The notes beneath the pieces are model-generated. The model was not told the origin of the DNA and made no database searches. It saw nothing but the letters and a program-made list of their open reading frames with translations. From Alphaproteobacteria bacterium (GTDB taxonomy: Bacteria > Pseudomonadota > Alphaproteobacteria > SHVP01): a stretch of DNA of 64,000 nt. The stretch is from positions 1-64,000 of the forward strand of contig VGES01000001.1 in the NCBI GenBank assembly GCA_016869765.1, read 5' to 3'. Each line of letters starts with the position of its first letter. Within the stretch, counting starts at the first letter, position 1. Below, piece by piece: positions 20,416 to 31,031 of the stretch. A program made the translations under genes and the position numbers.

Positions 20416-21402
20416 TCAACCCGCTCGCTCCACGCTCGCGCCTTGCTCTTGAGGCCCAGGCAGGGATACCCCTCGGGGCTGGTTCGAGCTCCACAAAGTG
20501 AGCACCCTTTCGATTTCGCGTTGTTCGCGGCGCGACGCCGAACCAAAGTCGATTTGTGAACTCTGGCGCGAACGGGGCACAACGTTGACTGTGTCGCTCC
20601 CAGCCGCCCAAGTCGGGGCGAACGGCTGTCCGGACGTTCGGTGCTGCTCGATCAGCGCCAGGAACTCGGCATGATCGATGTTCCAGGTCTGGACCAGGGT
20701 GCGGCTGAAGCCGGTTGCGATCCATGGCGCGACCGCCCGTAAGCGGTTTAGCGCTTCTGGCGCGTCCAATACATGGATCGGCAGGATCACGGCGTGTGCG
20801 TCGCGGTTCCAGATCGCGAGCTGGTACCAGTATATGGTCTGTTCACCATACGCCCATACCAACTGATCGATGTCCTGATACAGGAGCACGTTGTTGAGCG
20901 GGTAATAGATGCGCGGCCCGACGACGACGAAGGGGATCACGGCGAAGGGATCGGTGTCGACGATTGGTCCGCCGACCGCGTACGTCCGCAGATCGTGGAC
21001 CATACGTTGGCGTCTCCGCCAGCGCTGCCCCGCTCGGAACAGGCACCAGCCGAGCGGAGCGGCCACCAGGAACAGCCCGATGCCCACGATAACTGGCTCG
21101 TCTTCCTCAAGAAGCCCCATGAACAGGAAAAGGCTTCCGAACAAGACACCGGGGATCGCGAGGCCGATCGTCAGGGGCGAGTGGTGCATGTCCCGCCATA
21201 GACGAGGCAGACCCACGCGGATCGCCAGCCAAGGCAATGTGGCGCCGATCAGGATCGCTCCCGCGATCATCATCTCTACGTTGGTGTCGTCACCCTCGAA
21301 CAAACCGCCGGCAATCATAAGACTGCCAACCAGCCAAGGTGGTGTTAGCAGCACGATCCATAGAATGCGAAGTCTGCGCCCCGTTCTCGACGTCTTAAAC
21401 AC
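20416..21402 (-). CDS. Four-TM membrane protein with C-terminal soluble domain
   Basis: The GTG start at 21402 (GTGTTTAA) overlaps the stop of the upstream TIR-like gene by 8 nt, so translation is probably coupled. The 328-aa product has four predicted membrane helices (about 12-34, 42-62, 77-98, 103-122). A soluble C-terminal half follows, containing RIYYPLNNVLLYQDIDQLVW and YWYQLAIWNRDAHAVILPI, a beta-rich pattern reminiscent of bacterial PH-like membrane-associated domains. I do not recognise a named family. Longer in-frame starts up to 21576 overlap the upstream gene and look spurious. Confidence 0.7.
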   Translation of the reverse strand: MFKTSRTGRRLRILWIVLLTPPWLVGSLMIAGGLFEGDDTNVEMMIAGAILIGATLPWLAIRVGLPRLWRDMHHSPLTIGLAIPGVLFGSLFLFMGLLEEDEPVIVGIGLFLVAAPLGWCLFRAGQRWRRRQRMVHDLRTYAVGGPIVDTDPFAVIPFVVVGPRIYYPLNNVLLYQDIDQLVWAYGEQTIYWYQLAIWNRDAHAVILPIHVLDAPEALNRLRAVAPWIATGFSRTLVQTWNIDHAEFLALIEQHRTSGQPFAPTWAAGSDTVNVVPRSRQSSQIDFGSASRREQREIERVLTLWSSNQPRGVSLPGPQEQGASVERAG

Positions 21403-22264
21403 GGACGCCTCCGCGATTGGGCTCGAGCGATTGCACCTGGGCCACGAAGGGCGCCAACGCGCCCCGCCGCAGCACGTTAAGGGGCGACGGCCTGGCATTG
21501 GCGTCGAACATGAATCCGTCCGCCTCCGTGCAGTCGCTGGGTAGCGGCACCGGAAAATCCGCCGCAATCGCCGCACGGATTCGGGCGTAGCCGAGCGGCC
21601 GATCGGCAGAATTGGGTACGATCAACAAGACGCGGCGCGGGTCAATGGCGCTGGCGACGCGCATGACTTCCCAGCGCGTGCCGGCGCTAGTTTCCGGCTG
21701 CAGCACGACGGCGGCGGCCCGGATGAGCAATTCATCAACCTTCGCCTGCCATTCCTCGTCGCCCACGTACATGCGGGCCGCCCCGAGCGTGGCGAATTTT
21801 TCGCCCGGCGCCCCAATGGCGACGAACGGGCCGATCTCACGGAGGCCCCGTGCGAGAGTCTCTTCGGTCGGATCGCTTGATATCAGAGACTCGATCGCCC
21901 GCCCGCCGTGGCGAAGACCGAGCGGCATGCCACTCTGCAATCGTTCATCGGCGCGGAATGGCCGCAGGTAAACGACGGGCGGGCGTGAGTCGGCCGCAAG
22001 TACTTCGGCCGCATCGCGCGTCCTCAGCTTGCGGCCGCGCTTTACCATCCAAAACGAGAGGGTAACGGCGAGCGCGATCAACAGGAGATCGACCGGTCTG
22101 GGATCGTCGCCCAGATAGAAGATCGAGAACCAGGCTTGGGCGAGCGCCGCGAGCGGCGGCACCGCCGCGCCGACGAGCAGCAGCAGGCCGAGCGGCCGCG
22201 ATCGGAACGGTTGGTGGACGACGTTGGTGGGCGGCGGTGCGGCGGGCGGCAGTTCGTCGCTCAT
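21395..22264 (-). CDS. Membrane-anchored TIR-like protein
   Basis: The ATG at 22264 gives 289 aa. Two hydrophobic helices (about 24-46 and 58-74) precede a cytoplasmic alpha/beta domain. That domain begins PPVVYLRPFRADE (residues 96-107) and contains GPFVAIGAPGEKFATLGAAR and ETSAGTRWEVMRVASAIDPR (191-210), followed by VLLIVPN. The order strand / PFRxDE / VVLxP / SxxxRWE / strand is that of TIR domains, where the Glu after Trp (E199) is the NAD-cleaving residue in active members. This is inferred from pattern, not a confirmed match. It lies between a NUDIX gene (10 nt) and a four-TM gene (8-nt overlap). Confidence 0.65.
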   Translation of the reverse strand: MSDELPPAAPPPTNVVHQPFRSRPLGLLLLVGAAVPPLAALAQAWFSIFYLGDDPRPVDLLLIALAVTLSFWMVKRGRKLRTRDAAEVLAADSRPPVVYLRPFRADERLQSGMPLGLRHGGRAIESLISSDPTEETLARGLREIGPFVAIGAPGEKFATLGAARMYVGDEEWQAKVDELLIRAAAVVLQPETSAGTRWEVMRVASAIDPRRVLLIVPNSADRPLGYARIRAAIAADFPVPLPSDCTEADGFMFDANARPSPLNVLRRGALAPFVAQVQSLEPNRGGVRV

Positions 22265-22274
22265 GATGCGGAAT

Positions 22275-22829
22275 CTACTTCCGGCCGCCCTGCTCGATCC
22301 ACGCCTGCGAAAACGACGGCTGGAGCGTTGCGCTGGGGCCGTCCCCCCAAAGGTCGAGACAGGCGAGTGCACGCTCGAAGAACCACACGCCATCTCCGCC
22401 CTCGCCGGGCTCCGGCACGATGATCCGGTGCTTTCGTTCACGCAGCTCGTCGAGGCTCAACCAACGAAATTCGCTTCCGGCCATGTCGCTTCCCGTCGCG
22501 ACCACGGCATTCGTTGCCTGCAGCAGAAAACACGCACTTACGATCGCCGGTATGGTGTCGTCATAGCGGACCGAATAGGCGTGAAAGATGCCGAGCGGTC
22601 GCACGTTCAACGCCTCGCCTGCTTCCTCGCGGATTTCGCGAAGGACGGCATCGACCAGGGTCTCGCCCTGATCGACGAGACCTGCGACGACCTCCAGAGC
22701 GGGGCCTCGTTTCGGGTGCCTGAGCAACAAAAACTGGCGCGACGGATCGACGATGAAGGCGCACACCGAGACCGGGAAGAGCGCGAACTCGCGTCCCGCC
22801 GAATCGACGATGGTCGGGTGGCGCGCCAA
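22275..22829 (-). CDS. NUDIX hydrolase
   Basis: The conserved domain starts near RHPTIVDSAGREFALFPVSV and includes the NUDIX box GLVDQGETLVDAVLREIREE (Gx5Ex7REVxEExGx form), followed by AGEALNVRPLG. NUDIX enzymes cleave nucleoside-diphosphate-X substrates such as ADP-ribose, NADH or 8-oxo-dGTP; which one is unknown here. The TTG at 22829 gives 184 aa; the frame is open further upstream only as antisense-free overlap with the previous gene. The next gene, TIR-like, starts 10 nt after the stop, and the upstream amidohydrolase ends 20 nt before the start. Confidence 0.82.
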   Translation of the reverse strand: MARHPTIVDSAGREFALFPVSVCAFIVDPSRQFLLLRHPKRGPALEVVAGLVDQGETLVDAVLREIREEAGEALNVRPLGIFHAYSVRYDDTIPAIVSACFLLQATNAVVATGSDMAGSEFRWLSLDELRERKHRIIVPEPGEGGDGVWFFERALACLDLWGDGPSATLQPSFSQAWIEQGGRK

Positions 22830-28901: not shown

Positions 28902-29579
28902 ATGCATCTGGAATTTTGGTACGCGCTGCTCGTCTTCTTGCACGCGCTTCTCTTCGTCTATTGGCTTGGTGGCGATCTCGGCGTGTTTTACGCCAGTCGC
29001 TTCCGCAACAACTCGGCGTACGACATCAAGACGCGGCAGGTGGTCGGTAAGATCACCGCCGACATCGACATGGCACCACGCACGACGCTCGTGCTGATGC
29101 TGCCGGTCGGCTTTTCGGTGGCCGTGGCCAGCAACCGCATCGCCATGGATGCCCTGTGGCTGATCCCGTTGTGGGTCGGGTCGCTCGCCTGGCTGGCGTT
29201 GGTGTGGTGGCTCCACATCGAGAAGGACACGGCCAAGAAACAGCCGTGGGCCAAGAACGATCTTCGCTTGCGCCTGCTGTTGCTGGCCGTGCTTACCGTC
29301 TTGGGTGTCTACAGTTTGGCGACGCGCGAGCCGATCGCCGACGGCTGGTTGGCCATCAAGGTGCTGATCTTCGCTGCCTGCATCTTCTGCGGCTACATGA
29401 TCCGGGTCACCGGTCGGCCGTTCTTCGAAGCGACGCAGCGCATGAACAAAGAGGGTCCCTCGCCCGAATTGGACGCCATCCTGCGCGCCACCGCGAGCAA
29501 GCCGCGGCTCTGGGTGAAGTTCATCTGGGGCTTCGTGGCGCTCGCCGCGTTCATCGGGTTGTGGAAGCCCATTCTCTGA
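28902..29579 (+). CDS. CopD-like membrane protein, tandem copy 1
   Basis: A 225-aa polytopic protein preceded by a strong GGGGGGAG ribosome binding site. The N terminus ALLVFLHALLFVYWLGGDLG has the motif H-x5-YWLGxDxxVF shared with the next two genes. About five to six membrane helices follow, with a C-terminal half ILRATASKPRLWVKFIWGFV. The pattern (His in helix 1, WLGG) is like CopD/DUF2269 membrane proteins that may bind heme or copper. The sequences of the three copies are clearly diverged, so the duplication is old. Two strong hairpins separate it from copy 2. Confidence 0.78.
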   Translation: MHLEFWYALLVFLHALLFVYWLGGDLGVFYASRFRNNSAYDIKTRQVVGKITADIDMAPRTTLVLMLPVGFSVAVASNRIAMDALWLIPLWVGSLAWLALVWWLHIEKDTAKKQPWAKNDLRLRLLLLAVLTVLGVYSLATREPIADGWLAIKVLIFAACIFCGYMIRVTGRPFFEATQRMNKEGPSPELDAILRATASKPRLWVKFIWGFVALAAFIGLWKPIL

Positions 29580-29586
29580 CGCGATA

Positions 29587-29636
29587 GCCGGGTGAGGTCG
29601 GCCTCACCCGGCGTTGTTCCGGGGGCCCAAGCCCCC
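29587..29636 (+). terminator. Two consecutive hairpins between tandem copies 1 and 2
   Basis: GCCGGGTGAGG (29587-29597) and CCTCACCCGGC (29602-29612) form a perfect 11-bp stem with a TCGG tetraloop, 7 nt after the copy-1 stop. GGGGGC (29621-29626) and GCCCCC (29631-29636) form a second 6-bp stem with loop CCAA. The first is followed by GTTGTT, a weak U-rich tail. This looks like a terminator or differential-expression element within the cluster. Confidence 0.6.
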
Positions 29637-29670
29637 TAGGATTTGGGCCGGGGTTGCAAGGGGCCGTTCC

Positions 29671-30339
29671 ATGGACTGGCAAGTTTTTTGGATATTCATC
29701 CACGTCGCCCTGCTCGTGTACTGGCTCGGCGCCGATATCTCGGTGTTTCTCACCTCGCTCCGCGTCAAGAACGCCAACTACTCGAAAGAGACGCGGATGG
29801 CGCTCGTCAAGGTGCTGAATTTCGTCAACTGGTTTCCGAGCGGCGCCAACATGTTCATGCTGCCGGTGGGCCTGATGCTTGCCGACGGCCTCGGCCATTC
29901 GCCGGTCACCGGCTGGTGGTTGGTCCTGGTGTGGGTCGCGGCGTTCGCCTGGCTGCGCCTGATCTGGGTCGCCGGCAACAAGCGCGGCACGCCCGAGGGC
30001 AAGCGCCTGTCGACGATCGATCTCTACCTGCGCTACGCCCTCATCGCGTTGCTGGTCGTCGTCGGCGTGATGTCGCTCGCGACCGGCGAACCGTTCACGG
30101 CCGCCTGGCTCGCCGTAAAGCTCCTGCTGTTCGCCTACGTGCTCTGCATGGGCCTCGGGATCCGGTTCTCGTTCGCCAACTTCGGCCCGACCTTCGGCCG
30201 CATCATGGCGCAGGGTTCGACCCCGGAACTCGAGAAGGAGATCACGCGCCTCACCTACGCGGTGAAGCCGTGGGTGCTGCTCTTGTGGGGTGGGCTCGTG
30301 GTGATGGGCTACATCGGCATCGCCCAGCCGCAATTCTGA
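29671..30339 (+). CDS. CopD-like membrane protein, tandem copy 2
   Basis: The ATG at 29671 gives 222 aa starting MDWQVFWIFIHVALLVYWLG, with the same H-x5-YWLGADxxVF helix-1 motif as its neighbours. It carries six hydrophobic segments, FSFANFGPTFGRIMAQGSTP in the loop before the last helix, and KPWVLLLWGGLVVMGYIGIA at the C terminus. The MDWQ start is shared with copy 3, so copies 2 and 3 are the closer pair. Copy 3 starts 11 nt after the stop. The function is unknown. Confidence 0.78.
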   Translation: MDWQVFWIFIHVALLVYWLGADISVFLTSLRVKNANYSKETRMALVKVLNFVNWFPSGANMFMLPVGLMLADGLGHSPVTGWWLVLVWVAAFAWLRLIWVAGNKRGTPEGKRLSTIDLYLRYALIALLVVVGVMSLATGEPFTAAWLAVKLLLFAYVLCMGLGIRFSFANFGPTFGRIMAQGSTPELEKEITRLTYAVKPWVLLLWGGLVVMGYIGIAQPQF

Positions 30340-30350
30340 CGGGGACGACC

Positions 30351-31031
30351 ATGGACTGGCAAAGCGTCTTGAAACTGCTCCACGTCGTCACCTTCGTCTA
30401 TTGGGTGGGCGCGGATCTCGGCGTCTTCTACTCGGCGCGACTCATTATCAACAACCCACAGTATTCGGTTGCCACGCGGCAGGTGCTGCTGCACAACCTC
30501 GGGATCATCGACATGATCCCGCGCTACATGCTGCTCCTGACCTTCCCGGTCGGCGCGCAACTGGCGGCGGGGCTCGATGCCTCGCCTCTCACGGGCGGAT
30601 GGCTATGGCTGATCTGGATCGCGTCGATCGCGTGGATCGTCTTCGTGACCATCATTCACCAGCGCGAAGGCCAGCCGATTGCAAAAACCATGGCGCGTAT
30701 CGACCTGATGTTGCGTTATGCGTTCCTCGCGTTTCTCGTCGTCACGGCGATCATGACCATCGCCGGCGGCGGCTTCTACAAATACGAGTGGATCGGCTGG
30801 AAGGTGCTGGGCTTCGCCGCGGCGGTGTCGTGCGGCATCGGCATTCGCCTGTCGTTCACGCCGTTCATCGTCGGCTTCGGTCGCCTGGTCAAAGAAGGCT
30901 CGAACCCCGAGGTCGAGGGCCTGCTGCGCAAAGGTCTCAACGGCGCGGTTCCCTGGGTGCTCGGCATTTGGGTGTTCGCGGCGATCGTCGCCTTCATCGG
31001 GCTCAGCCACGAACGCCTGTTCGGCACCTGA
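30351..31031 (+). CDS. CopD-like membrane protein, tandem copy 3
   Basis: The ATG at 30351, with GGGGACG just upstream, opens a 226-aa product starting MDWQSVLKLLHVVTFVYWVG. It has the helix-1 motif (HVVTFVYWVGADLGVF), six hydrophobic segments, the loop FTPFIVGFGRLVKEGSNPEV and the last helix VPWVLGIWVFAAIVAFIGLS. The conserved pattern in all three is a helix-1 His, an acidic residue after the WxG, and GSxPELE or GSNPEVE before the final helix. It ends 4 nt from the convergent methyltransferase stop. Confidence 0.78.
   Translation: MDWQSVLKLLHVVTFVYWVGADLGVFYSARLIINNPQYSVATRQVLLHNLGIIDMIPRYMLLLTFPVGAQLAAGLDASPLTGGWLWLIWIASIAWIVFVTIIHQREGQPIAKTMARIDLMLRYAFLAFLVVTAIMTIAGGGFYKYEWIGWKVLGFAAAVSCGIGIRLSFTPFIVGFGRLVKEGSNPEVEGLLRKGLNGAVPWVLGIWVFAAIVAFIGLSHERLFGT

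What the first reader, a model, noticed from the sequence alone, without database searches (positions are those of the whole stretch)
20416..22829. NUDIX hydrolase, membrane-anchored TIR-like protein and four-TM protein in one tight gene set
Seen: a NUDIX gene, then 10 nt later a two-TM protein with a TIR-like pattern (PPVVYLRPFRADE, VVLQPETSAGTRWEVMRVAS, VLLIVP), then an 8-nt overlap into a four-TM protein with a soluble C-terminal domain. Known: active TIR domains cleave NAD, and many NUDIX enzymes hydrolyse ADP-ribose or NAD derivatives. Inference: the set may be a membrane-bound NAD/nucleotide signalling or defence module that I cannot match to a named system. E199 after W198 sits where the catalytic Glu is expected.
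Basis: partly seen in the sequence, partly recalled or inferred. Interest (0 to 1): 0.62.

Follow-up and report, generated by a model that had tools for sequence, protein, structure and literature searches.

The report
Membrane TIR-like and PH-domain gene pair
Two overlapping genes, which travel together in a few distantly related bacteria, encode a membrane-anchored TIR-like protein with an invariant active-site glutamate and a membrane partner with a PH-like domain; the NUDIX gene beside them is a bystander, and the function of the pair is still unproven.

Summary
The three ORFs exist as described, all on the minus strand. The three-gene set does not hold up; a two-gene set does. The TIR-like gene (A, 21395-22264) and the four-TM gene (B, 20416-21402) recur side by side with overlapping ends in four other alphaproteobacterial genomes. 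In a 385-genome sample of the class, B was found in exactly the four genomes that carry close A. No NUDIX gene was found in those flanks; a homologue sits in a sister genome without A-B.
A belongs to a broad family of TM-anchored proteins with no Pfam, NCBIfam, PHROGs or PADLOC match. Its best profile match is TIR (0 of 400 column shuffles reach the score; a CheY control is at chance). E199 aligns with the TIR catalytic Glu and is invariant in 13 divergent members. The family's mark is a conserved insertion at the BB-loop position. The moderate-confidence model is alpha/beta; DNPH1, a TIR relative, is among its best domain-covering PDB matches. B's C-terminal part models as a PH-like domain. 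The flanks are metabolic, not a defence island. Most likely this is a membrane-bound TIR-like glycosidase with a PH-domain partner; activity is untested.

The parts
21395..22264 (-). Gene A: membrane-anchored TIR-like protein, 289 aa
   Evidence: ORF; orthologues at 75, 51 and 44% identity
22040..22195 (-). A: two TM segments (residues 24-42 and 57-75)
   Evidence: Hydropathy; helices 23-49 and 57-80 in the model
21470..21991 (-). A: TIR-like alpha/beta domain, residues 92-265
   Evidence: Profile comparison to TIR; AlphaFold2 model
21761..21814 (-). A: conserved insertion at the TIR BB-loop position, residues 151-168 (GAPGEKFATLGAARMYVG)
   Evidence: Invariant G151, P153, G161, R164 in 13 members; 11-column gap in the TIR alignment
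21668..21673 (-). A: codons of W198 and E199, putative catalytic Glu
   Evidence: E199 invariant in 13 of 13 members; aligned with a Glu that is E in 15 of 15 TIR sequences
20416..21402 (-). Gene B: four-TM protein with a PH-like C-terminal domain, 328 aa, GTG start, overlapping A by 8 nt
   Evidence: ORF; in 385 class genomes found in exactly the four genomes with close A
20728..20940 (-). B: PH-like domain, about residues 155-225
   Evidence: AlphaFold2 model; structural matches almost all PH-type domains, best Z 7.2; weak DUF6709 matches
22275..22829 (-). NUDIX gene: neighbour only, judged not part of the A-B unit
   Evidence: PF00293 E 3e-17; not found near A-B elsewhere; homologue in G001, which lacks A

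Best explanation
A and B form a translationally coupled two-gene membrane module. A holds a TIR-superfamily domain at the cytoplasmic face of the inner membrane through two TM helices. It most likely cleaves an N-glycosidic bond (in NAD or a related nucleotide) using E199, and is controlled through a family-specific BB-loop insertion. B is its membrane partner, with a PH-like domain on the same face; it most likely senses, anchors the complex, or carries out the output at the membrane. Shown: gene pairing, hydrophobic anchors, TIR-like profile, invariance of E199. Model-based: the PH-like fold of B. Inferred: topology, enzymatic activity, substrate, physical A-B contact and biological role (stress or defence effector).
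For: Adjacent A-B pair in five genomes with overlapping ends; two-way co-occurrence in 385 class genomes, four of four; purifying selection on both. TIR is the best profile match, 0 of 400 shuffles, same-topology CheY control at chance. E199 invariant in 13 of 13 and aligned with the catalytic Glu, which PMC10022894 says all examined enzymatic TIRs need. DNPH1 among the best structural matches, covering most of its chain; PMC11204291 links some TIR active sites with NDT and DNPH1. B models as PH-like.
Against: TIR probability is only 38-50% and falls to 4% with the four close members alone. The A model is mediocre (pLDDT 69) and no TIR structure is in the displayed PDB list. Some TIR domains are non-enzymatic scaffolds. 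No experiment bears on activity, and the distribution is sparse (4 of 385 class genomes).
Confidence: 0.5

Rival explanations
1. A is a DNPH1/NDT-like nucleotide N-glycosidase tethered to the membrane, doing nucleotide clean-up or salvage, rather than an NAD-cleaving TIR.
For: DNPH1 chains at Z 8.2-8.4 over 115-128 residues and MilB at 7.1; the GTxWE motif resembles the NDT GTxxE motif, aligned by hhalign.
Against: Profile match to NDT is weak (1 of 100 shuffles) and below TIR. Glycosyltransferases score as high in the structure list. A membrane anchor and a PH partner are unusual for a salvage enzyme.
Confidence: 0.2
2. A is a catalytically dead TIR-like scaffold that relays a membrane signal by self-association, with B as receptor or adaptor.
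For: Non-enzymatic TIR scaffolds are well known (own knowledge); both proteins are membrane-bound; the TIR match is distant.
Against: E199 and W198 with R101, D106, E134, R164 and W172 are invariant or nearly so in 13 divergent members, which looks like an active site.
Confidence: 0.2
3. One reading: NUDIX, A and B form one three-gene NAD/nucleotide signalling or defence module.
For: Tight co-directional spacing in the window: 10 nt from NUDIX to A.
Against: No P0003 homologue near A-B in four other loci and no NUDIX box in their ORFs. No P0003 homologue at E 1e-4 in G034 or G332, and in G321 only a weak one on another contig. G001 has a homologue but no A. The gene before NUDIX is an amidohydrolase, 20 nt away.
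Confidence: 0.04

Closest known systems
TIR domains (Pfam TIR_2, PF13676)
   Same: Best profile match of the A family; E199 on the catalytic Glu; alpha/beta order before it matches
   Different: Below any Pfam threshold; conserved insertion at the BB-loop; extra C-terminal strands; two-TM anchor
DNPH1 and nucleoside deoxyribosyltransferases (PF05014, PF15891)
   Same: Similar fold in the structural comparison, Z 8.2-8.4; Glu in a GTxxE-like motif
   Different: Weak profile similarity (1 of 100 shuffles); NDT enzymes are soluble (own knowledge)
Thoeris with TM-macro ThsA (PMC11204291)
   Same: Two genes, a TIR protein and a TM protein with a soluble C-terminal domain
   Different: Here the TIR-like protein itself is membrane-anchored; the partner has a PH-like and not a macro domain; no PADLOC match
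DUF6709 (PF20456)
   Same: C-terminal part of B orthologues matches the last quarter of the DUF6709 profile (best E 2.4e-5)
   Different: All scores are below the family cut-off (best 23.9 against 27 bits); the N-terminal part is unmatched; no paper in the held library mentions DUF6709

Membership tests
TIR domain superfamily | Match to a curated TIR model | tested here: not met
   No Pfam or NCBIfam match for A or any of 13 family members
TIR domain superfamily | Profile similarity above chance | tested here: met
   hhalign score 28.2; 0 of 400 column shuffles reach it; CheY control 45 of 100
TIR domain superfamily | Catalytic Glu in the helix after the third strand | tested here: met
   E199 aligned with a Glu conserved in 15 of 15 TIR sequences and invariant in the A family
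TIR domain superfamily | Five-stranded TIR fold | tested here: inconclusive
   Alternating alpha/beta model with pLDDT 69; displayed structural matches do not include TIR chains
TIR domain superfamily | NADase or other enzymatic activity | not testable with these tools
   Needs an assay
DNPH1/NDT | Fold of the family | tested here: inconclusive
   DNPH1 Z 8.2-8.4, near background and tied with glycosyltransferases
DNPH1/NDT | Profile similarity | tested here: inconclusive
   1 of 100 shuffles reaches the score for each of PF05014 and PF15891
Thoeris | ThsA partner with SIR2-SLOG or TM-macro architecture | tested here: not met
   B has TM helices and a PH-like domain, no SIR2, SLOG or macro match
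Known defence systems (PADLOC) | Match to a model | tested here: not met
   A and B: no match; only the NUDIX protein hits a candidate model, PDC-S07
DUF6709 | Score above the Pfam cut-off | tested here: not met
   Best orthologue 23.9 bits against 27; window protein 12.4
NUDIX hydrolases | NUDIX domain and box GX5EX7REUXEEXGU | tested here: met
   PF00293 63.3 bits against cut-off 21.1; box GLVDQGETLVDAVLREIREEAGE read directly in the translation

The most novel reading that the evidence does not exclude
A-B is an undescribed two-gene membrane effector system. A membrane-anchored TIR-like glycosidase with a distinctive BB-loop insertion is switched by, or signals to, a PH-like-domain membrane partner. 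It would be one lineage of a large unnamed family of membrane TIR-like enzymes spread over Alphaproteobacteria, Streptomyces, Planctomycetes, Eremiobacterota and a deltaproteobacterium.
Probability: 0.25. Interest if true: 0.65.

Novelty: new variant of a known kind. Interest (0 to 1): 0.45.

Why it matters
If A is an active enzyme, it defines a membrane-bound branch of the TIR/NDT superfamily that curated libraries do not detect, together with a conserved partner that carries a PH-like domain. That gives concrete, testable residues (E199, R101, D106, R164, W172) and a partner gene for asking what membrane-bound TIR-like enzymes do outside defence islands.

Tried and rejected
NUDIX as a system member: rejected on co-occurrence. 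Phage-borne copies: none in viral contigs with P0001 as query, nor in phage records with the domain of L020. Sequence search of solved structures with A1, A5 and A6 gave only chance or designed-protein hits. Foldseek of A against BFVD gave nothing below E 0.01. Profile comparison of A with SLOG: 1 of 100 shuffles, weaker than TIR. TIR structures do not appear among the displayed structural matches of A, which does not exclude them. A broad alignment could not be used to scan viral contigs. The search with L020 in the phylum mostly returned TM2 domains. Papers: no description of this family found, within an open-access library only.

Full report
Observation. The three ORFs are present on the minus strand: NUDIX 22275-22829, A 21395-22264, B 20416-21402. 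Spacing is as reported: 10 nt between NUDIX and A, and an 8-nt overlap of A and B. NUDIX matches PF00293 at E 3e-17; A matches nothing in Pfam, NCBIfam, PADLOC or PHROGs; B has only sub-threshold Pfam matches and one weak NCBIfam match.

Relatives and pairing. A search of 385 genomes of the class found close A in four genomes from four families (the three besides the window at 76%, 51% and 45% identity) and distant ones in one further genome and as a second copy in G034. Nine same-family genomes lack it. A genome-contig scan re-found three of these and added a Baikal MAG (L019), as well as distant relatives in Streptomyces, a Gemmataceae MAG, an Eremiobacterota MAG and a deltaproteobacterial MAG; Streptomyces and Embleya plasmids carry more. 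In every close locus B follows A directly with overlapping ends. A separate profile search for B over a class sample of the same size returned exactly the four A-bearing genomes. This two-way match, with adjacency, is strong evidence for a functional unit. Nucleotide change between the window and L016 is strongly biased to silent sites in both genes.

NUDIX is not part of it. No P0003 homologue lies near A-B in L011, L012, L013 or L019, and a motif scan of their ORFs finds no NUDIX box. Flank lengths vary, and L019 has only 0.8 kb upstream. Across the A-B genomes, G034 and G332 have no P0003 homologue at E 1e-4, and G321 has a weak one on another contig. A 50-64% identical homologue is in G001, a sister genome without A. 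In the window NUDIX follows an amidohydrolase by 20 nt. Neighbours are amidohydrolases, a GNAT, an NMT1-type ABC importer, an acetoacetate decarboxylase-like protein and an MFS transporter. The other A-B loci sit by asnS, xseA, a 2'-5' RNA ligase-like gene and similar genes, named by eye from the translations. There is no sign of a defence island.

What A is. Thirteen diverse members share L100, R101, F103, D106, E134, G151, P153, G161, R164, W172 and E199, with W198 nearly invariant. The members examined carry hydrophobic segments before this domain, judged from the translations. I built profiles of TIR_2, two NDT families, SLOG (LDcluster4) and CheY receivers from alphaproteobacterial genomes and compared them with the A-family profile by hhalign. 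TIR scores 28.2 (probability 38%); no column shuffle reaches this (0 of 100, then 0 of 400, maximum 21.0). NDT, NDT2 and SLOG score 17-19 (1 of 100 shuffles each); CheY, chosen as a same-topology control, scores 11.8 (45 of 100). As a yardstick, NDT2 against TIR gives probability 83%, and NDT against TIR 15%. In the A-TIR alignment E199 sits on the TIR catalytic Glu, which is E in 15 of 15 TIR sequences, and the A family has an 11-column insertion where TIR domains have the BB-loop. The insertion holds the conserved GxPGExLPxLGAARxY motif. The signal is carried mainly by the nine distant members (29.7); the four close ones alone give 19.6.

Fold of A. AlphaFold2 with nine sequences gives mean pLDDT 69, with strands at 97-100, 147-150, 185-188, 212-215, 250-253 and 259-262 alternating with helices. 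Foldseek finds nothing at E 0.001. VIA-align ranks GtfD-type glycosyltransferases (Z 8.8-9.2) and DNPH1 (Z 8.2-8.4; 115-128 residues, nearly the whole DNPH1 chain) near the top, with MilB and ThsA at 7.1. These Z values are near background, so this is support for a Rossmann-like alpha/beta domain compatible with TIR/NDT, not proof. PMC11204291 notes that some ThsB TIR domains share an active-site tyrosine-glutamate arrangement with NDT and DNPH1, and PMC10022894 that all examined enzymatic TIRs need the conserved Glu and have a BB-loop thought to regulate access.

What B is. AlphaFold2 (pLDDT 59; soluble part mostly 74-81) gives TM helices, then six strands and a helix. The structural match list is nearly all PH and PH-like domains (best Z 7.2), a consistent but modest signal. 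Three orthologues match the last quarter of DUF6709 at E 2.4e-5 to 4.6e-4, below the cut-off, and the window protein matches only at 0.076. Orthologues in L017-L019 lack the first pair of TM helices, so the conserved core is two TM plus the PH-like domain.

Mechanism. Positive residues follow the last TM of both proteins, so both soluble domains should face the cytoplasm (inference from the sequence). The best reading is a membrane complex in which A is a TIR-like glycosidase using E199 and B senses, anchors or executes at the membrane. The pairing, anchors and invariant Glu are shown; the enzyme activity, substrate, contact and role are inferred. A scaffold role for A, or a DNPH1-like nucleotide hydrolase, remain open.

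Verdict. It is a conserved but rare two-gene membrane module in an unnamed family, of moderate interest.

Noticed in passing
L014:5192-6970 (+) beside L014:6998-8929 (-): A distant A-family gene in G361 lies tail to tail with a 593-aa protein with a DUF4231 / weak SLATT_3 match, a 2TM domain that associates with SLOG and SMODS proteins.
   Followed up: partly
L020:771-2141: A-family domain followed by a C-terminal TM2 domain (PF05154, E 5.9e-12) in a deltaproteobacterial MAG.
   Followed up: partly
L024:4410-6527: A-family domain in one 705-aa ORF with a C-terminal part that looks by eye like a dipeptide-type ABC permease; Pfam gives no match at E up to 1.
   Followed up: partly
L015:2706-4037: The genome G034 carries a second, distant A-family gene without a B neighbour.
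   Followed up: no
L019:780-1669: The A gene of this MAG is split over two frames, while B beside it is open for most of its length; sequencing error or decay cannot be told apart.
   Followed up: no
window 22275-22829: The NUDIX protein weakly matches the PADLOC candidate model PDC-S07 (E 1.8e-6), most likely a generic NUDIX similarity.
   Followed up: partly
window 28902-31031: Three successive plus-strand ORFs encode similar multi-TM proteins that look like diverged tandem copies (by eye).
   Followed up: no
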